This document shows, one piece after another, positions 7,159 through 30,435 of a stretch of DNA of 64,000 nt (the first letter of the stretch is position 1; each line of letters opens with the position of its first letter). Source of the stretch: an uncultured Carboxylicivirga sp. (GTDB lineage Bacteria > Bacteroidota > Bacteroidia > Bacteroidales > Marinilabiliaceae); contig CANNEA010000003.1 in NCBI GenBank assembly GCA_947503525.1, positions 496,001 to 560,000 on the forward strand. Reading direction: 5' to 3'. A model generated the notes under the pieces. The model was given only the letters and a program-made list of their open reading frames with translations, was not told where the DNA came from and did not search any database. The translations under genes were made by a program, and so were the position numbers.

Positions 7159-7746
7159 ATGATTAAAGAAAAATCAAATAATGACGAAGATCTTGTTTAT
7201 GCATTGAAGCATGGAGATGTGGAGGCTTTTGACAAAATTTTTAAGAAATATTGCGATAAACTTTTCTACTTTGCTGAAGGAATATTAAAGTCAAAAAGCG
7301 ATGCCGAGGAAATAATTCAGCAGGTTTTCATAAAGGTTTGGGAGAAAAGAAGCGATATAAATGAATCTTTATCGTTTAAATCCTACTTATTCACAATTAC
7401 TCATAATACCATTATTAGCTTTTTTCGTAAACGGGCCAGTGAACAAGATTATTTAAATAATCTCAAAGCTAATTTTCAATTTAATCAAGCGACAACTGAT
7501 CATCTTCTTGAATTTAATGAGTTAAATGAGCTTGTTGATGCAGCCATTAGCAAATTGCCTCCAAAAAGAAAGTTAGTTTATGAATTAAGCCGAAAGAAAG
7601 GGCTGTCTAATCAGGAAATTGCAAAGCAACTAAACGTTTCAAAGAACACTGTGGAAAACCAGTTAACCCAGGCATTGAAGTTCTTACGGGAGCAATTACG
7701 AACACATTCATTGCCTGCACTGTTATTTTACGTCCTGTTTATTTGA
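7159..7746 (+). CDS. ECF-type RNA polymerase sigma factor (FecI-like, Bacteroidota PUL type)
   Basis: 195 residues with sigma-70 region 2 at about 28-95 (EEIIQQVFIKVWEKR and the FKSYLFTITHNTIISFFRKR stretch) and region 4 at about 125-180, with the helix-turn-helix LSNQEIAKQLNVSKNTVENQ. Length and order match ECF factors paired with FecR anti-sigmas in Bacteroidota. It is followed by a fecR gene and an STN-containing SusC, the standard trans-envelope loop: a loaded SusC signals to FecR, which frees the sigma factor to transcribe the transporter operon. The last 15 residues are hydrophobic (ALLFYVLFI), a feature seen in some members. Confidence 0.93.
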   Translation: MIKEKSNNDEDLVYALKHGDVEAFDKIFKKYCDKLFYFAEGILKSKSDAEEIIQQVFIKVWEKRSDINESLSFKSYLFTITHNTIISFFRKRASEQDYLNNLKANFQFNQATTDHLLEFNELNELVDAAISKLPPKRKLVYELSRKKGLSNQEIAKQLNVSKNTVENQLTQALKFLREQLRTHSLPALLFYVLFI

Positions 7747-7962
7747 TTGATCCATTCATATAATCATTCCTATTTTTTATATAAAATCCCTTCATTGACA
7801 AAGAGCATTCCAGGCAATGTTTAAGTTTTTTTAATGAAATTTTATACTTTTTTCACTTTAGAGTAGTAGTGATTTCATTCTTGTGCGTATTACAGATGTA
7901 ATTAGCGTTCGTTATAACTCAACTAGCGAAATAACATTTGACAAATACAGACTTGTAGAGGA

Positions 7963-9105
7963 ATGGAAATAGATCTGGAATTATTTGGTAAGTTTTTTAA
8001 CAACACCTGCACCGAACAGGAGCTGGAAAAAGTATTGCTTTGGTTGCAAGATCCTTCAAATGATGAAGAAATCAGGAGCCTGCTGACTAAGTATCAAGAT
8101 ACAATAGAGCCAACAGAATCACTTGATTACGAAAGTTTGTTGGATAAAATTCATCATAGATTAAATATTCAGCACTCAAGACAGCAAAAAACACAGAAGC
8201 ATCAACAAGTAGGTAGTAGTTTTGTTAACAGGTTTTATACGGCATTTTCAAGAATTGCAGCAATTCTAATATTGCCATTAATTCTGATTACTTTATTTTA
8301 TTTCTTAAATGATGAGCGCTTCTTTCAAAGTCATACAAAAGTAGCCTACTCCACCGTTGAATCCGTTCAAGGTTCAAAAACAAAACACGAATTACCTGAT
8401 GGATCGACTGTTTGGTTAAATGGAGGAACAAAAATTACCTACCCTTTAAATTTTTCGAAAAATGAAAGGTTAATCACATTAAGCGGAGAAGCATTTTTTG
8501 ATGTGGCAAAAGATAAACGCAGACCATTTATTGTGAAGGCTTCGGGTTTAAATATCAGAGCATTAGGAACCTCTTTTAATGTTAAGGCTTACGCTGATGA
8601 TAAGGCCATAGAAACCACCTTGGTAACCGGTGAGATTAGTATAGAGGGGGAAGGTTTTCGACTAGGTAAGGAGGGTAAGATAATTCTTAATCCAAATCAG
8701 AAAGCTCTATTTTATAAAAATAATGATTTAGCACTTAGCCAAACTGATAGTAAGAAAAAATCGAATACTGTTAAACGACTTGCACCTCAAAAAATAGAAG
8801 TAAGTTCTAAAATTGATACAGATATTGATGTTGGTTGGATAAATGGAAAGCTGATTTTAAAAAATGCTCCATTGGATGAGGTTGCCAAAAAACTTTCGAG
8901 ATGGTATAATGCAGATATTGAACTTCTGAATCCTGAACTTTCAAAAATCAGCTATACCGCAACGTTTACAGATGAAACACTTTTTCAGGTTTTGGAATTG
9001 CTAAAATTGGCAACACCCATTGAATATTCATATTCGGGAAGAAAAATGTTAGAAAACAATACATATACAAAAAGAACAGTAAAAATTGGAATTAGGGGAA
9101 ACTAG
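7963..9105 (+). CDS. FecR-family anti-sigma factor
   Basis: 380 residues: cytoplasmic N-terminal sigma-binding part (1-95), one transmembrane helix (about 98-115, ILILPLILITLFYF), periplasmic FecR domain (about 125-225, with GSKTKHELPDGSTVWLNGGT) and a C-terminal STN-like DUF4974 domain (about 290-370, LDEVAKKLSRWYN). It is an inner-membrane protein that senses the signalling domain of the neighbouring SusC and controls the ECF factor encoded 216 bases upstream. That gap may contain a separate promoter. Confidence 0.93.
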   Translation: MEIDLELFGKFFNNTCTEQELEKVLLWLQDPSNDEEIRSLLTKYQDTIEPTESLDYESLLDKIHHRLNIQHSRQQKTQKHQQVGSSFVNRFYTAFSRIAAILILPLILITLFYFLNDERFFQSHTKVAYSTVESVQGSKTKHELPDGSTVWLNGGTKITYPLNFSKNERLITLSGEAFFDVAKDKRRPFIVKASGLNIRALGTSFNVKAYADDKAIETTLVTGEISIEGEGFRLGKEGKIILNPNQKALFYKNNDLALSQTDSKKKSNTVKRLAPQKIEVSSKIDTDIDVGWINGKLILKNAPLDEVAKKLSRWYNADIELLNPELSKISYTATFTDETLFQVLELLKLATPIEYSYSGRKMLENNTYTKRTVKIGIRGN

Positions 9106-9161
9106 AATTTTAAATATATAATGGATAGTTAATAGTATTAGTTGCTTGAATTGTAAAAAAA

Positions 9162-9189
9162 ACAGGAAAGTGGTGGAGCACTTCCCTGT
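9162..9189 (+). promoter_or_regulatory. Hairpin between fecR and susC (possible attenuator)
   Basis: Arms ACAGGAAAGTG and CACTTCCCTGT pair at 10 of 11 positions around a 6-base loop, 57 bases after the fecR stop and 79 before the likely susC start. It lacks a good T run, so it is more likely a partial terminator or RNA-processing site that separates regulator and transporter expression than a full terminator. Confidence 0.4.
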
Positions 9190-9267
9190 CAGTCTTTTAA
9201 CAAATTCAACATGCTTTACCGGTTGGTAGGCAAGGATCATTTATTAAATACAAATCAGCATAAATTT

Positions 9268-12200
9268 ATGAAAAAAAATCGACTCACCATAAAGAGATAT
9301 CTTAGGTTGGTAGGCTCATTAAAAGTCATTCGAATTATGAAAATAAGTGTTTTTTTAATTCTCATAGGTGTATTCCAGGCATTTGCTGCGAGTTCTTATT
9401 CTCAAAACGAAAGGTTGTCTTTGGATCTGGAAAATGTCACCGTTAAACAGGTTCTTGATAATATAGAAGCACAAAGCGAGTACTTTTTTCTCTACAGTAG
9501 TAAGTTAGTTGATGTTGAACGACGTGTTGATGTCATTGTCAAGAATAAGCTAATAAGCGAAATACTGAAAAGCACATTTGATGGAACAGATGTAGAATAT
9601 GTAGTTATGGATAAACAGATTGTTCTTTCATCGAGAAAAAATCTGGAATCTGCATTACAGGAATCATTGCTTTCCAAAGCTGTTAAGGGTAAGGTCGTAG
9701 GTACTGATGGCCTAGGTATTCCGGGTGTCAATGTGTTTATAAAAGGTTCAACTACAGGTACAATTACTGATATTGATGGCAATTATTCAATTGAAGTAAG
9801 CAACGAAAATGCAATCCTTGTATTTTCCTTTATTGGTTATGATAATCAAGAGATTATAGTTGGAGGACAAAGTGAAATTAATGTTCAACTTGTCAGTAAT
9901 GTTGAAGCATTAAGTGAAGTAGTTATAACGGCTCTGAATATTTCGAGAGATAAAAACTCGCTTGGCTATTCTATTACCGAAGTTTCCAATGAGGAATTAA
10001 CTCAAGTGCGAGATAATAACCCCATTAATTCACTTAGTGGTAAAGTGGCCGGCTTGCAAATATCCGGCACGCCTTCCGGTGTTGATGGCTCCAGTCGTGT
10101 TGTATTGCGAGGCATTACTTCCATTCAAGGGAATAATAGACCTCTGGTGGTTATTGACGGGATGCCGGTTGATAACAGATCATATGGAGGGACTAATGTA
10201 GATGGTGGTACGGATATGGGAGATGCTTTATCAGATATTAATCCGGATGATATTGAATCAATGAGTGTACTTAAGGGAGCGGGTGCTGCAGCTGCCTATG
10301 GATCAAGGGGGGCTAATGGAGTTATACTCATTACTACAAAAAAAGGAAGTGGAAGAAAAGGTTTGGGAGTGTCTTTTAATTCAAGTTTTATTGTTGAAAG
10401 CCCTTATCTGTTTCCTGATCTTCAAAACTCATATGGGCAAGGGGCATTTGGACAACACCCAATGGAGCACTATGACAATATGGAGGATATTAAATGGACA
10501 GATCCTTGGATATGGAGTTGGGGTAGACCTATGGAAGGACAAATCTATGAAGATTGGTTAGGCAATGATTCACCTTATAATCCACAATCAAATCAAATTG
10601 AAGAGTTTTATCAGAATGGCAGTAGCTTTATCAATACACTTGCCTTAGATGCAGGTAATGGTGAAACTTCATTCAGAGCCTCCATTACAACCCAGAATAG
10701 TTCCGGTATTTATCCCGGAAATAAAATGAATAAGCAAACCATCAACTTGCGGGGATTTTCAAAAATAGGAAAGCGATTAGAATTTGATAGTAAGTTCGTA
10801 TATATCCACAGTAAGGTTGAAAACAGACCTTATTTAAACGAAGATCCGGGAAATCCGGTTTGGGCATTGGGTATAATGCCCAGAAATGTAACACTTGCCT
10901 CATTAAAGGATAACTCAGTTGACCAAAATGGATATGAAATGTGGTCATTTGAGAAATCAGTTAGTAATCCATATTGGATACTGAATAATAAAAGCAATGA
11001 AGATTATAAGCACAGGATGCAAAGCTTTTTATCACTAAAATATGATATAAGTTCGAAATTTGATTTAATAGTTCGTTCGGGAATTGATTTTACTTCAAGA
11101 AATACGAGGTCGTATGCTGGGGCAGGTAGTCGTAATCATACTATAAGGTATGAATACCAAGGCTATATGGCTCAGAATGCCAGCCATTATGTAGAGTGGA
11201 ATTCAGATTTCATGTTTACATATCAGCAGCCGATTGGTAATAACTTTAACCTTAATTTAAGCTTAGGCGGTAACCATAGGTATAACCAACAGAAAAGCAT
11301 ATCACAAAGAGGTTATTCATGGCAGGCACCCAACTTTTATCACATGAGTAATGTTGGAACATCAACCACTGGTGAAAGATTAGTTGAAAAAGAAGTTCTT
11401 TCTTTGTATGGCTTAGGGACCTTATCCTTTAAAGACTACTTGTATGCCGATTTTACCTATAGAAAGGATGCCTCATCCACACTTCCGGCAGGTAATATGT
11501 TCTACGATTTTTATTCAACTAATGTAAGTTTCTTGTTTACGGAAGCGCTTAAAATGAACTCCAATGTGCTATCGAAAGGTAAAATAAGAGGATCTGTTGC
11601 CAGAGTAGGTAACGATACCGATCCATACCGAACAGCCAACTATTATAGTATGAGTTCAACCAATCTTTCGTATCCAACAGGAAGTTTATCCTCTACATTA
11701 GCCATTGAAAATTTTAAGCCTGAAATAACAACATCGTGGGAAATTGGAACCGAATTGGGCTTATTCCGCAATGCAATTAATGTTGATTTAACCTACTATG
11801 AAGCCTCTACCAAAAATCAGATTTTAAGTGTTGAACTTGCACCTTCAAGTGCCTTTAGATATCAAATAATAAACGCAGGAGAGATTCGAAATCATGGTTT
11901 TGAAGGTTTAATTTCAGCTTCTCCAATACGTTCGCATAGAACTTTAAAATGGGATCTTTCCTTTAATGTGACTAAAAACATTAATGAGGTTATTACCCTT
12001 ACTGACAATTATGATCAAGCCTACATTGAACGCTCCGTATTTGGTTTTGCCTTTGTTAGTATGAAGGTTGGTGAAAGCTTTGGTAGTTTATATGGCTATG
12101 ATTACAAAAGGAATTCGGCAGGTCAAAAGTTAATTACAGATGGTGGTTTACCCATTAAATCAGATGAAATGGTTAAGTTGGGAGATATAAATCCTGACTT

Positions 12201-15478: not shown

Positions 15479-15616
15479 AGCTTAACAATACTCTTCAAAT
15501 ACATTATAGTCAGTCTTAATTGATAAAACAGCACTCTCATAAATAAACACTTGAGAGCACGATTTGAAAAGTCTACAGAATATATTCCCGGCAAAAGACA
15601 GTTGAAAAATATTAGA

Positions 15617-16474
15617 ATGATCAAATACTTAATTCTACTCGTTTTTACTTGTACTTCAATATATGGATCAGCGCAAGTAAAGACCGATGTAAGCCTTTAT
15701 CTTAAGAAGGATAAAAATACTTATCTCGACGAAATATCTTCTGAATCCGGTAATCTTTTCAATAAGTTAGGGCATCACGGTCCGGCTATTGAAAATCAGT
15801 ATTTGGCCATTAGGGTTTATTTTAATAAAAAAGCGGCCATCGACATTTATTCTAAAGAAAAACCTGGTCTTGAACTTAAGGCAAAAAGATGGTATCCTTC
15901 AAAAAAGGACCAGCTTGCGGGTTATGGTGCTGATTATTATAAAGTAGGTAAAACTCTTGGCTTAGGTGGTGTTAGACTGTGGGATGGTGAAAATATTATA
16001 CCCTTGCATCCGGTAAGACAGCGAAGCGCCAAAGTGTTTACTCAGGCTGATTCCTCATACCTGGAAATGCTTTCTGAAGGTATTCCATACAGAGGCAAAA
16101 CGGTAGATATTTTAGTTAGGGTAAGTGTTTATGCAGATAAGCGTGAGGCAAAAGTTGAAGCGTATTCACTCAATGGAGAACCGGTACAGTTTGTAACAGG
16201 CATTAACTATTTTGACCAAATGAAAGTAGTTAAGGAGGAAAACTATATAGCCACCTGGGGAATCCATCCCGAAGATGTTGCGGCTGAGAAAGTGGAATTA
16301 GGGGCTGCCATTCTATTTAATAATGGTGATTTTGAAAAACAACTGAACGATGGAACACAGCACCTTTTAATTTCTAAACCAAGCCAATATTTAACAACTT
16401 GGATAACATCAGCCAATGCCAGAGAACTTGAAATAAATTCCTTTCAGAAGTTTATAAAATCGTTAATGAAATGA
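15617..16474 (+). CDS. DUF4861-family secreted protein
   Basis: 285 residues from the ATG at 15617, which begins a clean Sec signal peptide (MIKYLILLVF ... GSAQ); the longer frame from 15551 adds 22 charged residues ahead of it. The body has the DUF4861 features HHGPAIENQYLAIRVYF, KRWYPSKKDQLAGYGADYYKVG and LGLGGVRLWDG. The family is known mainly from polysaccharide loci and has no agreed reaction. Its stop overlaps the start of the next gene (ATGA), so the two are translationally coupled and probably act together. Predicted beta-sandwich; a periplasmic enzyme or binding protein are both possible. Confidence 0.78.
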   Translation: MIKYLILLVFTCTSIYGSAQVKTDVSLYLKKDKNTYLDEISSESGNLFNKLGHHGPAIENQYLAIRVYFNKKAAIDIYSKEKPGLELKAKRWYPSKKDQLAGYGADYYKVGKTLGLGGVRLWDGENIIPLHPVRQRSAKVFTQADSSYLEMLSEGIPYRGKTVDILVRVSVYADKREAKVEAYSLNGEPVQFVTGINYFDQMKVVKEENYIATWGIHPEDVAAEKVELGAAILFNNGDFEKQLNDGTQHLLISKPSQYLTTWITSANARELEINSFQKFIKSLMK

Positions 16475-18402
16475 GGAACATCAAGCTTAAACACTTCGTT
16501 TTTCTATTAATAGCATTTGTAATATCAACAATTATCATCGATGTAGTCCGCATTTCTGGCTATGACGTAATACCTGCAAAACCAAGTGTGAAAATTGATT
16601 GTAAACAAGATCAGGTTCAATATGACCTAGCGAATGGTGTAAGCGATATCAATTGGAATGATCTGGATGGTACCCTTGAATTTATAAGTCATGAATATGA
16701 CTGTTCAGATTTTAGATTAGTGAACCTTATCCGAATTATGTATGAAGCGGACAGCCTAATTCCAGATGATTATAGAGCTAAAATCGAAGACGTACTTTTA
16801 AATTTTCGTTACTGGTGGGATGAGCCAGGTGAAAACTCCATGTGCTACTGGAGTGAAAATCATCAGATACTTTTTATTTCGGCTGAATATCTTGTTGGAC
16901 AACTGTATCCCAACATTGTTTTTAAAAACAGTGGGTTAACAGGGAAACAACATATGGAAAAAGCGCGAAAAAGAGCCATGGATTGGTTTGAAATGCGCTG
17001 GAACTATGGTTTTATCGAATTCAATTCTGAAGTTTATTATAAAGAAGATATTGGTGCTCTTATCAATCTTATCGATTTTGCTCAGGATAAAGAAATGGTG
17101 AAAAAGAGCCAAATAATAATGGATTTACTTTTTTACGATGTTGCGGTTCATAACTTACAAACCATGTTTATATCTGCCACAGGCCGAGCCTATTCCAGAG
17201 GTCGTCAAGGTGGTCCTAATGCCAATCTGGGTGGTCTTACACGATACTATTGGGGCGATGGTAAAAAAATAAAGCCAAGCATGATGTATGGTTTGATGAC
17301 CACAGATAACTATGAATTACCATCGGTCTTAAGCGAAATTGCAAAAGATACTAATACGGTGATCATACAACAAAGTAATGGCCTCAACTTATCAGAGCTT
17401 AAAACTGAGGGCTATTATGGCACAAGTAACAGAAATATGATGATGCAGTGGGGAATGGAAGCTTTCTCAAATCCTGAGATCGTTCGGAATTCCTTATCAC
17501 ACGTAAGAAATCACATTTCTTTTAACAACGCCTTTGTTGCACCTTTTAGTACGCTTGACTTCTCCCTTATCAGGTGGCTGCATTTAGAGCCCCTTTTGAC
17601 TCGTATGATCAAGCCACAAACTAACGGTGTAGCTATTCAAAAGGGGAATACTTATACCTACAAGACTAAGGATTATTCGATGTATACGGCCCAGAATTAT
17701 CATCCCGGAACCTATGGTGATCAGCAACATGTATTTGGCCTTAATATCAAAAATCACTTTAGTGTTTTTCACACTCATCCAGCTTTGAAAAAGGGAAAAA
17801 AGCACCAATCGCCGAATTACCATGTAGGTTACGGACACCTACCTCATGCTGTTCAGGATAAAAACGTAAGTCTTGCTATTTATAATCTACCTGAAAAGAA
17901 AAGGCTTATGGAGATGCAACTATTAGACTTTACCCGTGCTCATTTTCCAATTGAAAAGTTTGATACAGCATTTGTTGATGGACGATACCTATTTGGAAAA
18001 AAGGGGGAAACGTACTGTGCTTTCATTGGCTTAAATAATTTCGAGTTCGTTGATAAGGAGAAAGATGATATCAAGCAAAATGGTAAAATTACATATTGGA
18101 TTACGGAGGCCGGTTCACTCACTGAAGATGGGCTGTTCAAAGATTTTATAAAGCGTATAAAATCCAATGAAGTGATATTTGATGCTAAGAATATGGAGCT
18201 TTGTTACCAATCCAATGCTAAGACCTATGAATTGTCCTATGGAGCAGGATTTTTGGTCAATAAACAAAATATTTGCACCAATTATCAGCGTTATACATCA
18301 CCTTATGTAAATGCTAAACAAAAAGATAAAACACTCACATTTGAATTTAATGGCAAGAAGCTATTTCTTGATTTTGACCATTTAATACGTGAGTTCAACT
18401 AA
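16471..18402 (+). CDS. Uncharacterised alpha/alpha-toroid protein, putative polysaccharide lyase (PUL1 copy)
   Basis: 643 residues with an N-terminal signal/anchor helix (about 8-25). The first half is helical with Trp/Tyr-rich motifs like an (alpha/alpha) toroid; the second half (from about 400) is beta-rich, the two-domain layout of PL8/PL21/heparinase-type lyases. Candidate catalytic motifs: SENHQIL (ENH at 129-131), GFIEFNSEVYY (183-190) and GRAYSRGRQGG. The same ENH and EFNS..Y motifs, in the same order, occur in the protein at 55556-57190. I recognise no named CAZy family. The start overlaps the DUF4861 stop by 4 bases, and GH105 follows 16 bases later; a GH105 partner fits a lyase that makes unsaturated uronic acid ends. 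Confidence 0.6.
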   Translation: MRNIKLKHFVFLLIAFVISTIIIDVVRISGYDVIPAKPSVKIDCKQDQVQYDLANGVSDINWNDLDGTLEFISHEYDCSDFRLVNLIRIMYEADSLIPDDYRAKIEDVLLNFRYWWDEPGENSMCYWSENHQILFISAEYLVGQLYPNIVFKNSGLTGKQHMEKARKRAMDWFEMRWNYGFIEFNSEVYYKEDIGALINLIDFAQDKEMVKKSQIIMDLLFYDVAVHNLQTMFISATGRAYSRGRQGGPNANLGGLTRYYWGDGKKIKPSMMYGLMTTDNYELPSVLSEIAKDTNTVIIQQSNGLNLSELKTEGYYGTSNRNMMMQWGMEAFSNPEIVRNSLSHVRNHISFNNAFVAPFSTLDFSLIRWLHLEPLLTRMIKPQTNGVAIQKGNTYTYKTKDYSMYTAQNYHPGTYGDQQHVFGLNIKNHFSVFHTHPALKKGKKHQSPNYHVGYGHLPHAVQDKNVSLAIYNLPEKKRLMEMQLLDFTRAHFPIEKFDTAFVDGRYLFGKKGETYCAFIGLNNFEFVDKEKDDIKQNGKITYWITEAGSLTEDGLFKDFIKRIKSNEVIFDAKNMELCYQSNAKTYELSYGAGFLVNKQNICTNYQRYTSPYVNAKQKDKTLTFEFNGKKLFLDFDHLIREFN

Positions 18403-18418
18403 TTAATCAATTATTAAA

Positions 18419-19495
18419 ATGATAAAAAATACACCCTCTGTGGTTCTGATAGCTGTGTTTACCATCTTATCTTTTTCGGTAAATGGTCAAGGTAAAAGTG
18501 GGAAAGCACTTCAGCTAAAAGTAGAGCCCGTAGAAATAGGGAATAAGATTGTTGACAACCTTGTAAACAGAAGGTTTGGGTGGCGTTATCAAAAAGTATG
18601 TAGCTTTTATGGTGCCTTAATATTTGCAGATGTCACTTCCAATAAGGAAATTTTGAATGAAATAGAAAATGGGTATCAACCCTATTTGTCGGGTAAGCGC
18701 AAACCACGAACCGATCATGTTGATTTTAATGTTTTTGGTATCTGGCCCTTGGAAATGTATCGTCAAACAGGGAAAGACGAATATCTTAAAATGGGGCAAT
18801 TCATGGCAGATGAAGAATATAAAACGCCACGTGAAGATGGTTTAAGCTATTTAAGTCGTTTTTGGATTGATGATATGTATATGGTTGCCTCATTGCAGGT
18901 GCAGGCCTATAAATCAACAAAGGATGAAAAATATTTGGATCGGGCTGCATTGCAATTAATGGCTTATGTTGATAGTCTCCAAAAACCCAATGGTTTGTTT
19001 TTCCATCGTCATGATGCACCCTTTTATTGGGGGCGTGGCAATGGATGGGCAGCAGCGGCTATGGCCGAGTTGTTTCAGGTTTTACCAGAGGAGCATAAAT
19101 ACTATAATGATCTTTTAATAGCCTATAAAAAAATGATGAGTTCTCTAAAAACTTATCAAGGTAAATCCGGGATGTGGCATCAACTGCTTGATGATCCTGA
19201 TAGTTTTGTTGAACCATCATGCACAGGCATGTTTTTATACGCCATTGCAACAGGTGTTAACATGGGGGTCTTACCTGAAAAGGACTATTTTCCAATCATT
19301 GAGAAAGGCTGGAATACTTTAGCCAGCGATTTTATTAATGAAAAAGGTGAAGTAATAGATGTTTGTATGTGGACCAATGCGAAAAAGCGTGAGAACTACT
19401 ATCATCGCAGACCAAAGATAACAGGTGATTATCATGGACAAGCTGCTGTATTGTGGGCTGCTACTGCCATAACAAAGCTAAATTCTTCACATTAA
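18419..19495 (+). CDS. GH105 unsaturated glucuronyl/galacturonyl hydrolase (YteR-like)
   Basis: 358 residues with a Sec signal peptide (ends VNGQ), so probably periplasmic. The whole mature part is one (alpha/alpha)6 barrel. Family marks: HVDFNVFGIWPLEMY (D102), FWIDDMYM with D151 at the position of the YteR catalytic Asp143, HRHDAPFYWGRGNGW (197-210), and a C-terminal GDYHGQAAVLWA. The reaction hydrates the vinyl ether of delta-4,5-unsaturated uronic acids left by lyases. It is the third gene of a tight cluster with DUF4861 and the toroid protein, so the substrate is probably made by one of them. GH88 is less likely given length and motifs. Confidence 0.88.
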   Translation: MIKNTPSVVLIAVFTILSFSVNGQGKSGKALQLKVEPVEIGNKIVDNLVNRRFGWRYQKVCSFYGALIFADVTSNKEILNEIENGYQPYLSGKRKPRTDHVDFNVFGIWPLEMYRQTGKDEYLKMGQFMADEEYKTPREDGLSYLSRFWIDDMYMVASLQVQAYKSTKDEKYLDRAALQLMAYVDSLQKPNGLFFHRHDAPFYWGRGNGWAAAAMAELFQVLPEEHKYYNDLLIAYKKMMSSLKTYQGKSGMWHQLLDDPDSFVEPSCTGMFLYAIATGVNMGVLPEKDYFPIIEKGWNTLASDFINEKGEVIDVCMWTNAKKRENYYHRRPKITGDYHGQAAVLWAATAITKLNSSH

Positions 19496-24003: not shown

Positions 24004-24780
24004 TTAAGTGGTTAATGCCTGAATCCGCATCATATAATCATTTAAATTATTAGCATATTCTGGCGAACCTTCAATGCTAATGTGATTCTTATCCACCCCA
24101 TCTACAAATTCAACATCTTTTAATAATATATTTAAGGCACCGTCAATGCCATTGAATTTCATATGTACAAAGGGGCGTTTACGTTTGTAAAAACCTCTTC
24201 CTGATTTTGTTTTACCTGCCTTAACGCGAAGATAGGTCGCAATATCTGTTCCTTCAACAGATAACTGATATATACGGTCTGGTTGCCTGCTAGTCCACGC
24301 AAGCATGTCCGGATCACCACTTTTGTTTAACTTACTTAAGGCTGTACATACCATGTATAAAGCCATTTTTACTTTCAAATATCTTTTAAGCTCATTCTTT
24401 GGTCGAGCATTGGGCATCATTAGTTTTAGCAACAATAACATGGAAACAAAACTGCCTAGTAGCCTGAAATTAAATAAACCTTTAATAGAGGGAAGCGCCA
24501 TGCCACCTGATAAAAAGGCATTCATTTTTTTAACGGTACTAAAGGTAAAAATTAAGTCGCCTTTATCCAGATTATCTTCTTCAATTGTTATTTCACCTTT
24601 GTTAAAGGTAAAGTGTGCTCCCAGGTAGCCCTCATTATGTCGTGCCCGTATAATTACATTTGCTGAAATGTCTTTAAAATTCTTAGCAGTCTTGGGATCA
24701 TCTTTTAATAATACTTTGAAGACCGGAAAAACGGCTTTTATATAGAGTTCAGCAACGAGTAAATCATTGTTAGTTGTCAT
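24004..24780 (-). CDS. SCP2-like (sterol carrier protein 2 fold) protein B
   Basis: 258 residues, no signal peptide, so cytoplasmic. The first half (about 1-115) has the SCP2 pattern of alternating strands followed by an ...AFLSGGMALPSIKG... loop; the second half (about 165-255) repeats a similar pattern (VHMKFNGIDGALNILLKD ... ISIEGSPEYANNLNDYM). SCP2 folds have a hydrophobic tunnel for lipids or acyl chains. It is the last metabolic gene of the operon, 41 bases after the transketolase C-terminal subunit, and is a distant paralogue of the protein at 27968-28729. Assignment to the fold is by pattern, not by close similarity. Confidence 0.65.
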   Translation of the reverse strand: MTTNNDLLVAELYIKAVFPVFKVLLKDDPKTAKNFKDISANVIIRARHNEGYLGAHFTFNKGEITIEEDNLDKGDLIFTFSTVKKMNAFLSGGMALPSIKGLFNFRLLGSFVSMLLLLKLMMPNARPKNELKRYLKVKMALYMVCTALSKLNKSGDPDMLAWTSRQPDRIYQLSVEGTDIATYLRVKAGKTKSGRGFYKRKRPFVHMKFNGIDGALNILLKDVEFVDGVDKNHISIEGSPEYANNLNDYMMRIQALTT

Positions 24781-24821
24781 AAATAATAACTATTAATATA
24801 GTTTAACTTTAAGCATAAGGG

Positions 24822-25841
24822 CTAGTACTCATCTTCCCAATTGTCATCTTCCTCGAAATCTTTCCCCATAATTTCACGAACATTTTCAATAATACCATCA
24901 GCATTCAGCTTATAATGGGCGTATAAATCTTCGGGATATCCGATCTCAGCAAATTCATCTTGCAGGCCTACTTTAGAAAAAGCACATCCTTTTCCACTCT
25001 CGGCAATCACATCGGCCACAGCTGTTCCTAAACCACCAATTGTACTATGTTCCTCTACAGTTAACAGACGTCTGGTTTCTGTTACAGCTTTTAAAATAGC
25101 TTCTTTGTCAATGGGTTTAATGGTATGAATATTAATAACTCTAACACTTAAGCCATCATTCTCGGCAAGAAAATCAGCTGCTTCTGCCGCTTGAAGTACA
25201 GTAATTCCAGTGGCAATAATTGTGATATCTGTACCCTGGCGGATTTCGATGGATTTACCAATTTGAAAGTCGTAGTTTTCATCTTTATAGTACGAAGGTT
25301 CAAAACCTCTACCAATGCGGATATACACTGGACCTGGATATTTTACAGCCGCTTTAACAGCTTTGGCAGTTTCAATACCATCAGCTGGCACTATTACAGT
25401 CATATTGGCAAACGATCGCATGATGGCAATATCTTCTGTGGCCTGATGAGTTGTTCCGGCAGAGGCAAATGCAACTCCACCATGCGTGGCAATGATTTTT
25501 ACATTTAATTTTTGATAACAGATATCGGTACGAATTTGCTCGGCAGCTCTCAATGAGGCAAAAACAGCCATGGTAGAAACAAAAGGTTTTAAGCCTGTTT
25601 TGGCCATCCCGGCAGCAATCCCAAACATGTTTTGCTCTGCAATGCCTACATTAACAAATCGTTCGGGAAATTTCTCCTGAAATAAACCAATTTTAGTGGA
25701 CTTCGCTAAATCAGCAGAAAGACCCACTATTTCAGAATGCTCATCCCCTAAATCGCACAATACTTGTCCATATATTTCGGCTTGTGTCAGTTTATTTGCA
25801 TCATAAACATTCCAAGTTGTTCCTGTTACTTTTTTACTCAT
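24822..25841 (-). CDS. Split transketolase, C-terminal (pyrimidine/transketolase-C) subunit
   Basis: 339 residues: pyrimidine-binding domain with the catalytic glutamate E69 in VNVGIAEQNMFGIAAGMA, the HGGVAFASAGTTHQATEDIA segment, and a C-terminal transketolase-C domain ending in an acidic tail (EEDDNWEDEY). It forms the ThDP active site with the N-terminal subunit encoded 17 bases upstream. Split transketolases occur in pathways with unusual acceptors, for example apulose 4-phosphate or sulfosugars, besides ordinary pentose metabolism. Here the gene sits next to a class III aminotransferase and SCP2-like proteins, so a special substrate is likely. Confidence 0.9.
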   Translation of the reverse strand: MSKKVTGTTWNVYDANKLTQAEIYGQVLCDLGDEHSEIVGLSADLAKSTKIGLFQEKFPERFVNVGIAEQNMFGIAAGMAKTGLKPFVSTMAVFASLRAAEQIRTDICYQKLNVKIIATHGGVAFASAGTTHQATEDIAIMRSFANMTVIVPADGIETAKAVKAAVKYPGPVYIRIGRGFEPSYYKDENYDFQIGKSIEIRQGTDITIIATGITVLQAAEAADFLAENDGLSVRVINIHTIKPIDKEAILKAVTETRRLLTVEEHSTIGGLGTAVADVIAESGKGCAFSKVGLQDEFAEIGYPEDLYAHYKLNADGIIENVREIMGKDFEEDDNWEDEY

Positions 25842-25858
25842 GTTTTTAAGATTTTGAT

Positions 25859-26704
25859 TTAAATTCCCAGGTCAGCGTACATCTTATCGACTGAAAGATG
25901 GGCTTGCTTTCCTTTTTCAGAATCAATAGCTCCATAATGCCATTTGGTTTGATCTTCCATAAAATCAACCCCTTTGCCTTTAATGGTTTTTGCTATAAGC
26001 ACTGTGGGTTTACCCTTAATCTCCAAGGCATAGTCTATGGCCTTTGAAAGTTCAATCATATCATGTCCATCTATCTCAAGGGTTTCCCAGCCAAAAGCCT
26101 TCCACTTATCTGCCAGAGGTTCTAGACCCATTATTTGTTCAACAGGCCCATCAATCATTTGCATATTGCGATCAACAAAAAGGATTAGGTTATCTGCCTT
26201 ATGATGAGCTGCGGCCATGGCTGCTTCCCAGTTGGATCCTTCATTGAGTTCTCCATCGCCAACAATGCAATAAGTGTTAAAATCCTTTTTTTGCATTTTT
26301 GCTCCCAAAGCCATTCCTAAAGCCATTGGCAAACCATGACCTAATGAACCGGTAGATGCATCACAGCCTTTAATTTTCAGGCTGTCAGGGTGCATTCCAA
26401 AAGGGGATTTAAATTTATTAAATGTGTCCAATAAGGCCTTGTCGAAATAACCTCGCTCAGCTAAAGTGGGCACATAGCCAATAGCTCCATGTCCCTTACT
26501 TAAGATAAATCGGTCACGATGTGGATCATCCGGATTTGAAGGATCAATATTCAGGTATTTAAAATATAAGATGACCAGTATATCGAGCATACTTAAACCA
26601 CCTCCAATATGCGCGCCACCAGCTTTCATGGTAGTGTCAATAATGGAATGTCTAATGGTTCGGGCCGTCTCCAGTAGTTTTTTATGTTCGTCAGTAGTCA
26701 GCAT
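25859..26704 (-). CDS. Split transketolase, N-terminal (ThDP-binding) subunit
   Basis: 281 residues, a lone transketolase PP domain. ThDP/Mg motif: GDG at 149-151 through N180 (GDGELNEGSNWEAA ... FVDRN). Also SKGHG (69-73) and GSLGHGLPMALGMA (119-132). With the C-terminal subunit downstream it transfers a two-carbon ketol unit. The reading frame starts 8 bases after the aminotransferase stop, indicating tight co-expression. Confidence 0.92.
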   Translation of the reverse strand: MLTTDEHKKLLETARTIRHSIIDTTMKAGGAHIGGGLSMLDILVILYFKYLNIDPSNPDDPHRDRFILSKGHGAIGYVPTLAERGYFDKALLDTFNKFKSPFGMHPDSLKIKGCDASTGSLGHGLPMALGMALGAKMQKKDFNTYCIVGDGELNEGSNWEAAMAAAHHKADNLILFVDRNMQMIDGPVEQIMGLEPLADKWKAFGWETLEIDGHDMIELSKAIDYALEIKGKPTVLIAKTIKGKGVDFMEDQTKWHYGAIDSEKGKQAHLSVDKMYADLGI

Positions 26705-26712
26705 AATTGTAT

Positions 26713-27954
26713 CTATTTTGTATTGTTTTTGATTGCTTTAAATGCCTCATCCGCAATTTTCAAGGTTAATTCAATATCTTCATTGGTATGAGCTGCAGAA
26801 ACAAACCAATTGTGATGCGATGTGAAATATGCTCCGCGCTTGGTAGCTTCTCCACACCATTTTTGATGTAACACAAGACTTGGATCGTCCACCAACCTGT
26901 ATGAGGCCATGGATGGATGTCCCGTAATTTTCATGGTGTAACCATGATCCTTAGCCAGATCAATTAAGCCCGAATTAAGCTTGGTGCCGATGTCAAACAT
27001 TTTTTGAACACTATTGGTCTTCTTCATTTCGCGTATGGTAGCCAGGGCGGCTGCCATTGGCTCAGCTGAAAACCAATAACTACCAGTATGAAAAACATTA
27101 CTGGCAGCACTTAATACATCTTTTGTTCCAACCAAAGATGAAATAGGATACCCATTACCAATGGCTTTACAAAAGGCAATTAAATCAGGTTTAAATCCAA
27201 AAAACTCGTTTGATCCTCCCATATCCATTCTAAATCCGGCACGAACATCATCAATGATTAAAAGGATGCCTTCGTTTTTGCATAAATTTTCTACTTTTTG
27301 CCAATAACCTTCGTCAGGATACTCGCTATCAGCAAAGGTTGGATGATGATAAGGGGTTGAAATGATGCCTGCTATTTTTCCCTTATTAGCATGAACATAT
27401 TTCTCCAAAGCCTCATAATTGTTCCATTCACCAACTATGATATCCTTTGCATCGTTAAAAGTTATGCCATGATGATCGGGCGATTGAGACCATGGAGCAG
27501 TGCCATGGTAACCTCCTTTTAGTCTGATGATCTTATCACGACCCGTATGAGCGCGAGCTATCATCAACGAAAAAGTGGTCATATCGGCCCCATTTTTGGC
27601 GAAAAAGGCCCAATCTGCGATGGGGATAGTATCTACCATTTCTTGAGCCAGCTCAACCATTACTTCGGCCGGTCCACTGGCACAGTTAGCCTTTTTGCGC
27701 TGAGCATCAGCAGCAGCATCCACAGTCGGATTATTATAGCCTAAAACCATTGGTCCATAGGCACACATGTAATCAATAAACTCATTGCCATCTATGTCCC
27801 AAAAACGTGATCCTTCAGCTTTTTCAACATAAAATGGATAGTCCGTGACAGGTATTAATGGAGCCGGACTAAAATGTCCATATATACCGCATGGTATGAT
27901 ATCAGCAGCCTTTTTAAACAGTTCTTGAGATTTATGATAGGTATATGTTTTCAT
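26713..27954 (-). CDS. Class III PLP aminotransferase (glutamate-1-semialdehyde aminomutase-like)
   Basis: 413 residues, fold type I. PLP lysine K263 in FCKAIGNGYPISS; cofactor aspartate D235 in IIDDVRAGFRMD, where the family usually has DEV; phosphate-binding NGADMTTFSLMIARAHTGR around 121-139. Length and motifs resemble GSA aminomutases, but the surroundings contain no haem genes, and HemL proteins have a different pattern around 20-60. Likely transaminates an aldehyde or ketone made or used by the transketolase. Located 13 bases after an SCP2-like gene and 8 bases before the transketolase N-subunit. Substrate unknown. Confidence 0.85.
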   Translation of the reverse strand: MKTYTYHKSQELFKKAADIIPCGIYGHFSPAPLIPVTDYPFYVEKAEGSRFWDIDGNEFIDYMCAYGPMVLGYNNPTVDAAADAQRKKANCASGPAEVMVELAQEMVDTIPIADWAFFAKNGADMTTFSLMIARAHTGRDKIIRLKGGYHGTAPWSQSPDHHGITFNDAKDIIVGEWNNYEALEKYVHANKGKIAGIISTPYHHPTFADSEYPDEGYWQKVENLCKNEGILLIIDDVRAGFRMDMGGSNEFFGFKPDLIAFCKAIGNGYPISSLVGTKDVLSAASNVFHTGSYWFSAEPMAAALATIREMKKTNSVQKMFDIGTKLNSGLIDLAKDHGYTMKITGHPSMASYRLVDDPSLVLHQKWCGEATKRGAYFTSHHNWFVSAAHTNEDIELTLKIADEAFKAIKNNTK

Positions 27955-27967
27955 ATTTAAGCTAAAT

Positions 27968-28729
27968 TTATGATACGTATTGGTTCACTTTGTCGAGTAT
28001 AAGGCTGAGATTATCCAGCATTGGAATCTGACCTTTAATCATGACTTCGCCACTGGCAATGGCTTTAAATGGATTTGACTTACCATTTAAGAAAGCATTG
28101 GCTGTTTCAAAATTGCTCATTTCCATTATAGCATCAGGATTTTCAGTAACCCCTTTATTTGCCACTAATTCTCCATCTTTAATGACTATATAAACCGATG
28201 GACCATCTGGTAATACTTGAAGTTGAATTTTACCATTACGTGTATGACTAGCTGTTATATTTGCCTTTTTATCGTATCTGGCAATTTCAGGTAAAGCAAA
28301 AGCAGCAACGGTTAAAGTAAATTGTGTATTTATTTTAATGTACTCTTTCGAGGGCTTCTCGACTTCTTCTGGCTTCAGATAGTATTCCAGTATTTTTGTA
28401 ATCTGTGTGAATTCGTTTTTCAGAAAGCCAAGTTTTGTGAAGCCTTTTAATGGAATGGGATTGGCTTTACCATCAAACATCTTATTAAGGTGTTCCGGCG
28501 ATGTAAACCAAAGCTTAATTGATGCTGATTTAAGTCTACCCTGGCCAACGAGGCATTGACCATTTTTAAAACTTAACCATGCTTTAGGTCCGTTTTTTAC
28601 CAAAAACTGAACAGATAAAGTTTTGCCTTTTATTAATTCCTGACACTTTGAGTCAAGACCTATGAGCTCCTCAAGGTTCTTTAATATTGCATAAAGATTT
28701 ATTCCTGCTTTTATGATCTGATACGCCAT
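27968..28729 (-). CDS. SCP2-like protein A, first gene of the operon
   Basis: 253 residues, no signal peptide. Two SCP2-like halves: about 1-115 (SVQFLVKNGPKAWLSFKNGQ ... LNKMFDGKANPIPLKG) and about 140-253 (GPSVYIVIKDGELVANKG ... NAFLNGKSNPFKAIASGEVMIKG), the second being the clearer match to the SCP2 consensus (strand-strand, a ...LNGK.. loop, then a G..i.G strand). Probably binds a hydrophobic or CoA-linked molecule. It leads the five-gene operon with the aminotransferase, split transketolase and a second SCP2-like protein. No reported function for this arrangement is known to me. Confidence 0.72.
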   Translation of the reverse strand: MAYQIIKAGINLYAILKNLEELIGLDSKCQELIKGKTLSVQFLVKNGPKAWLSFKNGQCLVGQGRLKSASIKLWFTSPEHLNKMFDGKANPIPLKGFTKLGFLKNEFTQITKILEYYLKPEEVEKPSKEYIKINTQFTLTVAAFALPEIARYDKKANITASHTRNGKIQLQVLPDGPSVYIVIKDGELVANKGVTENPDAIMEMSNFETANAFLNGKSNPFKAIASGEVMIKGQIPMLDNLSLILDKVNQYVS

Positions 28730-29064: not shown

Positions 29065-30435
29065 ATGAAATTTGAGGAAATCATTGAGCAACAACGCTTC
29101 TTTTTTAATTCAAATCATACGAAAGACCTTAATTTTAGAATTGATACTTTAAAGAAGATACTGTTTCTACTAAAAGAAAATGAACACCTTTTGTATAAAG
29201 CGGTGTATGATGATTTTGGAAAATCAGAGTTCGAAACTTACACCACTGAATTTTCATTAATATACCACGAAATCAAGCTTGCCATAAAAAAGTTAAAGAG
29301 CTGGAGCAAAAGAATAAAGGTAAGAACCGGATTTGCCAATTTTCCTGCTAAAAGTTACATTATACCAGAGCCTTTGGGCACAACCTTGATTATTGGAGCA
29401 TGGAATTATCCTTATCAATTATCCTTATTGCCAGCCATATACTCTCTTGCTGCAGGAAATACAGTTATTTTAAAACCAAGTGAGCTGTCGTCAAAAGCCT
29501 CCAGGGCAATGGCTACATTAATTAATTCTAATTTTGAGAGTAATTATTTCCATGTTGTGGAAGGTGGGGTTTCAGAAACCACAGCACTTTTGGAACATCG
29601 TTTTGATAAGATATTCTTTACGGGTAGTATTCCTGTTGGCCGATTGATTTATCAAGCTGCAGCGAAGCATTTAACACCTGTAACTCTTGAACTCGGTGGG
29701 AAAAGTCCGGCTTTTATTTTCGCTGACTGTGATATGAAAACAACAGCCAAGCGTATCGTATGGGCCAAGTTTATTAATGCTGGTCAAACCTGTGTTGCTC
29801 CTGATTATATTTTAGTAGAAAAGGGAGCTGAAGAAAAACTCTTAAAGGCTTTATATAAGGAACTCGAAAAATACCCTAAAACCTTTCAGGAATTTTCAGA
29901 TCATTACATGCAAATTGTTAACACAAAGAATTTTGATCGTTTAAATCAACTGATTGATGAAAGTAAGGTTTGCTTTGGAGGTACCAGAGATAGAGATGCC
30001 CGTTTTATTAGCCCAACAGTTCTTAAAGATGTGAGTTTTGAGGATAGCATAATGGAAGATGAAATATTTGGCCCAATTTTACCAATTCTTACATTTTCTG
30101 ACTTGGATAATGCCATTCATCAGGTAAAGAGTAGAGCAAAACCACTTGCGTGCTATATTTATTCACGTAATACCACAAGCATAAATAAATTATTATCAGA
30201 ATTGTCATTTGGAGGCGGTGCCGTGAACGATAGTGTAATGCACTTATCCAATAGTAATTTACCATTTGGTGGAGTAGGGTTCAGTGGAATCGGGAGTTAC
30301 CATGGTAAGGCAGGGTTTGATGCCTTTTCTCATTTTAAAAGCATTTTGCATAAGCCATTTTGGTTTGAATCTCATTTTAAATATGCGCCTTATTCGGCAA
30401 GTAAATTGAAATGGATTAAAAGAATAATGGAATAG
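29065..30435 (+). CDS. Aldehyde dehydrogenase (ALDH3-like)
   Basis: 456 residues, the short form typical of class 3 ALDHs. Motifs: PLGTTLIIGAWNYPYQLSLLP (103-123), FFTGS (184-188), catalytic E209 in TLELGGKSP, nucleophile C243 in NAGQTCVAPDY and PFGGVGFSG near the C-terminus. Oxidises medium- or long-chain fatty or aromatic aldehydes with NAD(P). Hydrophobic residues at the C-terminal end are few, so membrane anchoring is doubtful. It is divergent from the SCP2 operon and shares its promoter region, so it may act on the same hydrophobic metabolite; this link is inference. Confidence 0.92.
   Translation: MKFEEIIEQQRFFFNSNHTKDLNFRIDTLKKILFLLKENEHLLYKAVYDDFGKSEFETYTTEFSLIYHEIKLAIKKLKSWSKRIKVRTGFANFPAKSYIIPEPLGTTLIIGAWNYPYQLSLLPAIYSLAAGNTVILKPSELSSKASRAMATLINSNFESNYFHVVEGGVSETTALLEHRFDKIFFTGSIPVGRLIYQAAAKHLTPVTLELGGKSPAFIFADCDMKTTAKRIVWAKFINAGQTCVAPDYILVEKGAEEKLLKALYKELEKYPKTFQEFSDHYMQIVNTKNFDRLNQLIDESKVCFGGTRDRDARFISPTVLKDVSFEDSIMEDEIFGPILPILTFSDLDNAIHQVKSRAKPLACYIYSRNTTSINKLLSELSFGGGAVNDSVMHLSNSNLPFGGVGFSGIGSYHGKAGFDAFSHFKSILHKPFWFESHFKYAPYSASKLKWIKRIME

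What the first reader, a model, noticed from the sequence alone, without database searches (positions are those of the whole stretch)
24004..28729. SCP2-aminotransferase-split transketolase-SCP2 operon of unknown purpose
Five minus-strand genes with 8-41 base gaps: SCP2-like A, class III PLP aminotransferase, transketolase N-subunit, transketolase C-subunit, SCP2-like B. Enzymes of C2 transfer and amination are sandwiched by two double-SCP2-fold proteins, which in known biology hold lipids or acyl chains. The catalytic residues (K263; GDG-N180; E69) are intact. No described pathway that I know has this set. Hypotheses: making an amino-polyol head group on a hydrophobic carrier, or handling an unusual aldehyde acceptor. 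The set being bracketed by SCP2-like genes suggests they are structural partners rather than passengers.
Basis: partly seen in the sequence, partly recalled or inferred. Interest (0 to 1): 0.75.

Follow-up and report, generated by a model that had tools for sequence, protein, structure and literature searches.

The report
Lipid-handling transaminase and transketolase operon
Five neighbouring genes appear to build a two-enzyme line that takes apart long-chain amino lipids such as the backbone of sphingolipids, using a transketolase that seems to have been refitted from sugars to greasy molecules, with each enzyme accompanied by its own lipid-holding protein.

Summary
In detail: five minus-strand genes (24004-28729) encode SCP2-B, a class III aminotransferase, split transketolase N and C, and SCP2-A; both SCP2 proteins are predicted tandem SCP2 folds. 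The set recurs in Bacteroidota, spirochaetes and Desulfobacterota as two modules: SCP2-A follows transketolase C in 46 of 47 loci, SCP2-B precedes the aminotransferase in 39 of 39. Even apart they co-occur (spirochaete sample: both in 23, one in 4, neither in 269 of 296 genomes). The aminotransferase's nearest solved relative acts on hydrolysed fumonisin, a sphinganine analogue. The transketolase keeps its catalytic residues but has lost three acceptor-site residues (E. coli R358, R91, D469). Some loci add an aldehyde oxidoreductase or alanine dehydrogenase. Neutral ceramidase is enriched in spirochaete carriers (11 of 27 against 5 of 90), but the window's genome has none. Best reading (0.5): breakdown of sphingoid-type bases. 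Transamination gives a 1,3-dihydroxy-2-ketone, transketolase removes the C2 ketol, the fatty aldehyde is oxidised, and the SCP2 proteins present the lipid. Substrate, chemistry and direction are inferred. Ten searches of the open library found no description.

The parts
27968..28729 (-). SCP2-B: tandem SCP2-fold protein, partner of the aminotransferase
   Evidence: PF02036 1.3e-13; model pLDDT 94.7, folds like SdsA1 SCP2 domain, UbiJ and human MFE-2 SCP2 domain; AT directly downstream in 39 of 39 loci, window included
26713..27954 (-). Class III PLP aminotransferase, FumI-like (proposed long-chain 2-amino-1,3-diol : 2-oxoacid aminotransferase)
   Evidence: Nearest solved structure 6hbs 'Aminopentol aminotransferase' E 2.5e-99, next best GSAM 5.8e-51; 40.5% identical to FumI, 29.6% to GSAM, one clade with FumI in a tree
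25859..26704 (-). Split transketolase N subunit (ThDP binding)
   Evidence: Transketolase_N 1.4e-46; nearest solved 6yak split transketolase 1.6e-77; E. coli R91 position is Asn in 42 of 43 module rows, the other being masked
24822..25841 (-). Split transketolase C subunit with a conserved acidic C-terminal tail (EEDxxWEDE-type)
   Evidence: catalytic Glu kept in 44 of 44; E. coli R358 position Ala in 41 of 44, D469 position Ala in 44 of 44; tail W[EDAQ]D[EDGN] in 44 of 44; the tails of four fetched transketolases without SCP2-A lack it
24004..24780 (-). SCP2-A: tandem SCP2-fold protein, basic, partner of the transketolase
   Evidence: No Pfam hit over cut-off; model pLDDT 94.1, same SCP2 folds; TK-C directly upstream in 46 of 47 loci, window included
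29065..30435 (+). ALDH3-class aldehyde dehydrogenase, divergent here; probable last step (fatty aldehyde to fatty acid)
   Evidence: PDB matches: 6k0z aldehyde dehydrogenase 7.8e-134, 1ad3 class 3 ALDH 4.2e-123, 4qgk fatty aldehyde dehydrogenase 7.2e-121; the orthologue (63-66%) lies directly after SCP2-A on the same strand in L009 and L010
22081..22647 (-). Crp/Fnr-type regulator, possible regulator of the operon
   Evidence: cNMP_binding 5e-10; a 62% identical gene lies directly upstream, divergent, of the operon in Draconibacterium L009

Best explanation
A catabolic pathway for long-chain 2-amino-1,3-diols (sphingoid-type bases) that needs neither oxygen nor a sphingoid-1-phosphate. Step 1: the FumI-like aminotransferase moves the C2 amino group to a 2-oxoacid (probably pyruvate, giving alanine), leaving a 1,3-dihydroxy-2-ketone. 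That product carries CH2OH-CO-CH(OH)-R, the donor motif of transketolases. Step 2: the split transketolase cleaves C2-C3, passes the two-carbon ketol to a sugar-phosphate acceptor, and releases a fatty aldehyde. Step 3: an ALDH3-class dehydrogenase, or in some relatives possibly an aldehyde:ferredoxin oxidoreductase, oxidises the aldehyde to a fatty acid. SCP2-B serves the aminotransferase and SCP2-A the transketolase, each holding the alkyl chain and presenting the polar head; SCP2-A may dock on the acidic tail of the C subunit. Shown here: gene order, module pairing, co-occurrence, SCP2 folds (predicted), kinship to FumI, remodelled transketolase site. Inferred: substrate, reactions, direction and physical complexes.
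For: Conservation of the five-gene order across phyla. SCP2-A next to TK-C in 46 of 47 loci, SCP2-B next to AT in 39 of 39. Co-occurrence of the two modules: spirochaete sample both 23, A only 2, B only 2, neither 269 of 296; Desulfobacterota sample both 13, A only 2, B only 3, neither 377 of 395 (Fisher 8e-30 and 8e-20). AT: FumI is the nearest solved relative by 48 orders of magnitude in E-value; FumI deaminates hydrolysed fumonisin B1 with pyruvate, giving alanine (PMC2933618, passages), and an alanine dehydrogenase lies near a transketolase or aminotransferase module in 5 Desulfobacterota loci (L015, L125, L132, L135, L144; three of the five scanned, all over the TIGR00518 cut-off). Transketolase: catalytic residues kept, but R358->A in 41 of 44, D469->A in 44 of 44, R91->N in 42 of 43; D469T was the first of three changes by which the E. 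coli enzyme was evolved to take aromatic aldehydes that the wild type did not use (PMC5073344, passages). S385 (43 of 44), H461 and R520 (44 of 44) equivalents are kept, as a phosphorylated acceptor would need. ALDH3 neighbours in window, L009, L010 and L115; aldehyde:ferredoxin oxidoreductase neighbour in L109, L112, L149. Neutral ceramidase in 11 of 27 spirochaete carriers against 5 of 90 sampled non-carriers, Fisher 3e-5. SCP2 folds resemble those of SdsA1 alkylsulfatase and UbiJ.
Against: No biochemistry. The window's own genome has no PF04734 match, 16 of 27 spirochaete carriers have none, and in 8 of 90 spirochaete non-carriers (5 strongly) it is present without the modules; relatedness of genomes was not controlled. 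R358 is retained in 2 of 44. AT is only 40% identical to FumI, and FumI-like enzymes sit in other contexts. ALDH or AOR is adjacent in only a minority of loci, and the flanking genes scanned are mostly unrelated to lipids. The host also carries an SPT or cysteate-acyltransferase-like synthase, so it may make such bases itself. One SCP2-A (L014, Phycisphaerae) stands without a transketolase gene beside it, and the SCP2B-AT-TKN set of the same genome (L146) shows no TK-C or SCP2-A in the fetched stretch.
Confidence: 0.5

Rival explanations
1. Biosynthetic direction: the transketolase adds a C2 ketol to a fatty aldehyde and the aminotransferase aminates the product, giving a sphingoid-like 2-amino-1,3-diol without serine palmitoyltransferase.
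For: Both reactions are reversible in principle, and transketolase-transaminase cascades making 2-amino-1,3-diols are known in biocatalysis (recalled; only lists papers holding these words, such as PMC5073344). An SPT-like synthase was found in 0 of 16 Desulfobacterota module genomes at E 1e-60.
Against: 5 of 5 Bacteroidota carriers have an SPT/CFAT-like synthase. ALDH/AOR, alanine dehydrogenase, ceramidase enrichment and FumI's known direction favour breakdown.
Confidence: 0.15
2. Same pathway logic on a different hydrophobic amino compound (another long-chain amino alcohol, an amino-hopanoid or an unusual aminolipid), not sphingoid bases.
For: SCP2 folds are found in proteins serving diverse hydrophobic substrates. 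Ceramidase is absent from the host and from 16 of 27 spirochaete carriers. FumI itself acts on a polyol chain, not a true sphingoid.
Against: Ceramidase enrichment in spirochaete carriers; fumonisins are described as structurally like sphingosine and sphinganine.
Confidence: 0.2
3. Soluble amino-polyol or amino-sugar catabolism: the AT makes a ketose that the transketolase splits; SCP2-like proteins are mere scaffolds without lipid.
For: Paralogous split transketolases in carriers sit beside genes that look like sugar transporters, a glycerol-kinase-family kinase and an isomerase (L155, L159). A FumI-like AT sits beside a class II aldolase and sugar kinase in Novosphingobium. S385/H461/R520 positions are kept.
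Against: No sugar transporter, isomerase or kinase family recurred among the clusters and neighbours that I looked at beside the modules. R91, D469 and R358 are lost; two dedicated SCP2 proteins.
Confidence: 0.12

Closest known systems
FumI, aminopentol aminotransferase of fumonisin degradation (PDB 6hbs)
   Same: Nearest solved relative of the AT; acts on the C2 amine of a long-chain sphinganine-like compound with pyruvate as acceptor (PMC2933618, passages)
   Different: 40.5% identical; the three FumI-group genes looked at have no SCP2 or transketolase annotated within 8 kb, though L163 has an 'alpha-ketoacid dehydrogenase subunit alpha/beta' (also a ThDP enzyme) nearby
Split transketolase of Carboxydothermus hydrogenoformans (6yak, 6yaj)
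   Same: Two-chain ThDP transketolase; nearest solved relative of both subunits
   Different: It keeps the Arg and Asp equivalents of E. coli R358, R91 and D469, which nearly all module enzymes have lost; an SCP2 partner is not named in the listing
UbiJ (SCP2 accessory protein of the ubiquinone complex) and the SCP2 domain of alkylsulfatase SdsA1
   Same: SCP2 folds serving enzymes that act on hydrophobic substrates (fold matches; UbiJ abstract PMC9499169 seen in search listing)
   Different: Here two tandem SCP2 proteins, each paired with a different soluble enzyme family; fold matches are partial (TM by query about 0.3; single-domain matches cover one half)
Sphingosine-1-phosphate lyase and Pseudomonas SphBC sphingosine metabolism
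   Same: Bacterial breakdown of sphingoid bases (PMC5234717 search listing; PMC11893366 passages)
   Different: Lyase on a phosphorylated base, or periplasmic oxidase plus cytochrome c; no transketolase or SCP2 in the passages seen

Membership tests
FumI-type aminopentol/sphingoid aminotransferase | Groups with FumI and not with GSAM or other class III aminotransferases | tested here: met
   E-values; tree and identities (module ATs 36-45% to FumI, 24-31% to GSAM; outgroups limited to one GSAM and seven other class III enzymes from the fetched loci)
FumI-type aminopentol/sphingoid aminotransferase | Deaminates a long-chain 2-amino alcohol with pyruvate | not testable with these tools
   Needs enzyme assay
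Transketolase | ThDP site (GDG...N), catalytic Glu and active-site histidines | tested here: met
   Glu 44 of 44, Asp 43 of 43, Asn 43 of 43, His (EcH66, H261) 43 of 43, EcH26 42 of 43 (one Ser), EcH100 42 of 43 (one masked)
Ordinary sugar-phosphate transketolase | Full acceptor/phosphate site (EcR91, R358, S385, H461, D469, R520) | tested here: not met
   R91, R358 and D469 positions changed in the window and nearly all relatives; S385, H461 and R520 positions kept
SCP2 fold proteins | SCP2 fold | tested here: met
   SCP2-B by PF02036; both by AlphaFold2 model and Foldseek
SCP2 fold proteins | Binds lipid | not testable with these tools
   Model coordinates were not among the files available to scripts; no pocket measured
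Sphingoid base catabolism | Co-occurs with ceramidase | tested here: inconclusive
   Spirochaetes 11 of 27 against 5 of 90, Fisher 3e-5; Desulfobacterota 5 of 16 against 0 of 10, p 0.12; the window's genome has none

The most novel reading that the evidence does not exclude
A transketolase holoenzyme dedicated to lipids: a split transketolase with a remodelled acceptor site and an SCP2 lipid-presenting subunit docked on its acidic tail, working after a FumI-type aminotransferase with its own SCP2 subunit. It would cut (or, in reverse, build without serine palmitoyltransferase) the sphingoid backbone, a third chemistry beside sphingosine-1-phosphate lyase and periplasmic oxidation, and usable without oxygen.
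Probability: 0.5. Interest if true: 0.87.

Novelty: new variant of a known kind. Interest (0 to 1): 0.73.

Why it matters
If right, transketolase chemistry, known from sugar phosphates, has a natural lipid branch, and bacteria of several phyla can use sphingoid-type lipids without oxygen and without first phosphorylating them. It would give a role to two unassigned SCP2-fold families, provide a natural counterpart of the transketolase-transaminase cascades used in biocatalysis (recalled), and offer enzymes for removing sphingoid-like toxins. It turns the fate of sphingolipids in sediments and anaerobic guts into a directly testable question.

Tried and rejected
Sole-transketolase idea: rejected, the host has a separate 677-aa transketolase frame. 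Sulfosugar or apiose-type split transketolase pathways: recalled as possibilities. Among the clusters and the neighbours scanned, no sugar isomerase, kinase or transporter family recurred beside the modules, whereas paralogous split transketolases in L155 and L159 do sit by such genes, including a weak relative of sulfoquinovose isomerase (101 bits, cut-off 700). Hopanoid amination: considered, not tested (no genome searches left). Polysaccharide link: the window's alginate-lyase-like gene has no counterpart in the five relatives compared (L009, L010, L156, L158, L155), while the heparinase-like gene is syntenic in L010 only and the GH88 gene has its close counterpart there; I read this as neighbourhood rather than function. 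Plasmid relatives of the AT gave diverse contexts and no single pathway. Pfam scans of 30 neighbours showed mostly genes with no evident link to the pathway. VIA-align was not available.

Rows and choices: from the fetched loci I left out L148 and L147 as duplicates of L011 and L016, and matches under 55 bits. The 47 and 39 rows include the window and sometimes two loci of one genome; L146 was fetched for its transketolase hit, the others for an SCP2 hit. In one search transketolase C rows of 250 aa or less were dropped (L010 and L013) and L014 has none, so 44 of 47 SCP2-A loci are counted. In the ceramidase tests the 33 non-carriers were mostly the first-listed negatives, and the 74 are 74 of the 253 remaining spirochaete non-carriers drawn at random with a fixed seed. 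Co-occurrence counts were read by me (E below 1e-50 for both families). G362's partial SCP2-B match (2.7e-29) was counted as present; without it the spirochaete count is 22 both and 3 A-only. My own ORF caller is crude and misplaces genes in G+C-rich loci. 'Spirochaete' and 'Desulfobacterota' samples are the phyla of the genomes behind L011 and L015, named from those record titles.


Full report
What is there. Five minus-strand ORFs lie at 24004-28729 with gaps of 8 to 41 bases. In transcription order they encode SCP2-B, a class III aminotransferase (AT), transketolase N, transketolase C and SCP2-A. Pfam recognises four of the five; SCP2-A has no match over cut-off. AlphaFold2 models from alignments of 41 and 33 relatives are confident (mean pLDDT 94.1 and 94.7). 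Foldseek matches each to single SCP2 domains and to alkylsulfatases that carry such a domain, with SdsA1, UbiJ-SCP2 and human SCP2-type domains among the matches. Catalytic residues of the enzymes are intact.

Distribution. In the host's order the SCP2-A family was found in 1 of 149 genomes, the host itself. In its family an SCP2-B match was seen in 4 of 71 genomes: the host, two strong (G172, G175), and one weak that turned out to be SCP2-A of a module (G174). A scan of named genomes found SCP2-A in Draconibacterium, another Prolixibacteraceae MAG, a Spirochaetia MAG, a Treponema MAG, three Desulfobacterota/Deltaproteobacteria MAGs and a Phycisphaerae MAG. The same five-gene order is present in the Draconibacterium, Spirochaetia and Desulfobacterales loci. 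The SCP2-A profile matched in 27 of 296 spirochaete-phylum genomes and 28 of 395 Desulfobacterota genomes, some of these being SCP2-B or weak hits. The operon has 38.6% G+C, its window 36.9%.

Two modules. In the loci examined, SCP2-A lies directly after transketolase C in 46 of 47 cases (window included), and transketolase N was found before it in 42. Of the other five, four (L010, L012, L013, L158) are cut by a contig end or lack a match, and one is L014, which has no transketolase gene beside it. SCP2-B lies directly before the AT in 39 of 39. All these loci but L146 were chosen by SCP2 hits, not by the enzymes. AT and transketolase N are joined in 21 loci; elsewhere the two modules lie on different contigs or far apart in the same genome, or only one was found. 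Even so they occur together: in the spirochaete sample both in 23 genomes, SCP2-A only in 2, SCP2-B only in 2, neither in 269; in Desulfobacterota 13, 2, 3 and 377 (read; Fisher 8e-30 and 8e-20; relatedness not corrected). Each SCP2 protein thus belongs to one enzyme, and the two enzymes belong to one process.

What the aminotransferase is. The nearest solved structure is 6hbs, 'Aminopentol aminotransferase' (FumI), E 2.5e-99; the next is a glutamate-1-semialdehyde aminomutase at 5.8e-51. Module ATs are 36-45% identical to FumI and form one clade with it in a tree that includes a GSAM and seven other class III enzymes from the same loci. FumI removes the C2 amino group of hydrolysed fumonisin B1, passing it to pyruvate and giving alanine (PMC2933618, passages read). 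Fumonisins resemble sphingosine and sphinganine (PMC9858248, passages). An alanine dehydrogenase family occurs near a module in five Desulfobacterota loci (L015, L125, L132, L135, L144). Three of its members were scanned and all pass the TIGR00518 cut-off. A pyruvate-dependent catabolic transaminase would want such a neighbour.

What the transketolase has become. Both subunits are closest to the split transketolase of Carboxydothermus. Against human and Carboxydothermus enzymes, the position of E. coli Arg358 is Ala in 41 of 44 module sequences (Val 1, Arg 2), that of Asp469 is Ala in 44 of 44, and that of Arg91 is Asn in 42 of 43, one being masked. The mapping of E. coli to human numbers, and that Arg358 contacts the phosphate, are recalled. 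Asp469 and Arg91 form a salt bridge in the E. coli enzyme, D469T was the first of three changes that let it take aromatic aldehydes, and Ser385 is known to interact with substrate phosphate (PMC5073344, passages). Ser385 (43 of 44), His461 and Arg520 (44 of 44) positions are kept, so a phosphorylated second substrate remains possible. The module C subunits end in an acidic tail with W[EDAQ]D[EDGN] in 44 of 44; the last 18 residues of four fetched transketolases not linked to SCP2-A lack it. SCP2-A is basic (median net charge +11 of 47) and C subunits acidic (median -16 of 49 rows, a few paralogues included). A docking role for the tail is inference.

Neighbours. The ALDH of the window (29065-30435) is of class 3; PDB matches include 6k0z at 7.8e-134 and fatty aldehyde dehydrogenase 4qgk at 7.2e-121. 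Orthologues follow SCP2-A directly in L009 and L010, and an ALDH3 is convergent with the operon in a spirochaete (L115). An aldehyde:ferredoxin oxidoreductase stands beside transketolase N in L109, L112 and L149 (one cluster, two members scanned). A TetR-type regulator family occurs in 12 fetched loci, one of them (L148) a duplicate. A Crp/Fnr-like regulator is shared by the window and L009 (62%). Most of the other neighbours scanned have no evident link to the pathway.

Genome context. Neutral ceramidase (PF04734) was found in 17 of 44 module genomes (12 with E below 1e-25) and 0 of 33 non-module genomes. A second call with six more module genomes (5 positive) and 74 random spirochaete non-carriers (8 positive, 5 strongly) weakened this to an enrichment. 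In spirochaetes it is 11 of 27 against 5 of 90 at E below 1e-19 (Fisher 3e-5; 11 of 27 against 8 of 90 if weak hits count, 3e-4), and in Desulfobacterota 5 of 16 against 0 of 10 (p 0.12). The host has none. The host has a synthase whose best PDB matches are a '7-keto-8-aminopelargonate synthetase-like enzyme', a cysteate-C-fatty acyltransferase and serine palmitoyltransferase. Such a gene is strong in 5 of 5 Bacteroidota carriers, present at 31-36% identity in 10 of 21 spirochaete carriers, and absent at E 1e-60 from 16 of 16 Desulfobacterota carriers. The host also has another transketolase.

Mechanism. A 2-amino-1,3-diol such as a sphingoid base becomes, on transamination, a 1,3-dihydroxy-2-ketone. 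That is precisely the ketol donor that transketolases cleave (established enzymology), so the two enzymes fit each other chemically, and the released chain is a fatty aldehyde, which fits ALDH3 and perhaps AOR. The SCP2 proteins would hold the chain. I put the whole scheme, in the breakdown direction and for sphingoid-type bases, at 0.5. The reverse, biosynthetic direction, another hydrophobic amine, or a soluble amine remain as rivals.

Literature. Ten searches of the open library showed no description of a transketolase-based sphingoid pathway or of SCP2 partners of transketolase in the papers listed. Known bacterial routes seen are sphingosine-1-phosphate lyase (PMC5234717, listing) and Pseudomonas SphBC (PMC11893366, passages). 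Most subscription papers and all bioRxiv preprints are outside that library.

Noticed in passing
L164 (Novosphingobium capsulatum plasmid) 7098-10242: A FumI-like aminotransferase (61% to FumI) sits between a class II aldolase and a carbohydrate kinase, with an aldehyde dehydrogenase nearby: possibly the same transaminate-then-cleave logic with kinase and aldolase instead of transketolase.
   Followed up: partly
L154, L155, L159: Paralogous split transketolases in Draconibacterium (L154, L155) and another Prolixibacteraceae genome (L159) lack the acidic tail and SCP2-A. In L155 and L159 they lie beside sugar-type ABC transporter genes (by eye), a glycerol-kinase-family kinase and a weak relative of sulfoquinovose isomerase.
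   Followed up: partly
window 15551-19495 and L010 3629-7581: A GH88, heparinase-like (by eye) and further gene block near the operon is syntenic (61-65% identical) in another Prolixibacteraceae MAG that also carries part of the operon at a contig end.
   Followed up: no
L116 and L117 (G409 and G490, genomes of about 2 Mb): Operon followed by a glyoxalase-fold protein and a sulfatase; each of these small genomes also holds two ceramidase genes.
   Followed up: no
L132, L135, L144: Transketolase-SCP2A module near amino acid permeases, alanine dehydrogenase, two subunits related to (R)-2-hydroxyacyl-CoA dehydratases (below NCBIfam cut-offs) and other class III aminotransferases.
   Followed up: no
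L099, L100, L123: Genes related to the alpha and beta subunits of NAD(P) transhydrogenase (below NCBIfam cut-offs, one member of each scanned) lie near the operon in three spirochaete genomes.
   Followed up: no
L133 and L136: An enoyl-CoA hydratase gene lies upstream of SCP2B-AT on the same strand in two Desulfobacterota genomes.
   Followed up: no
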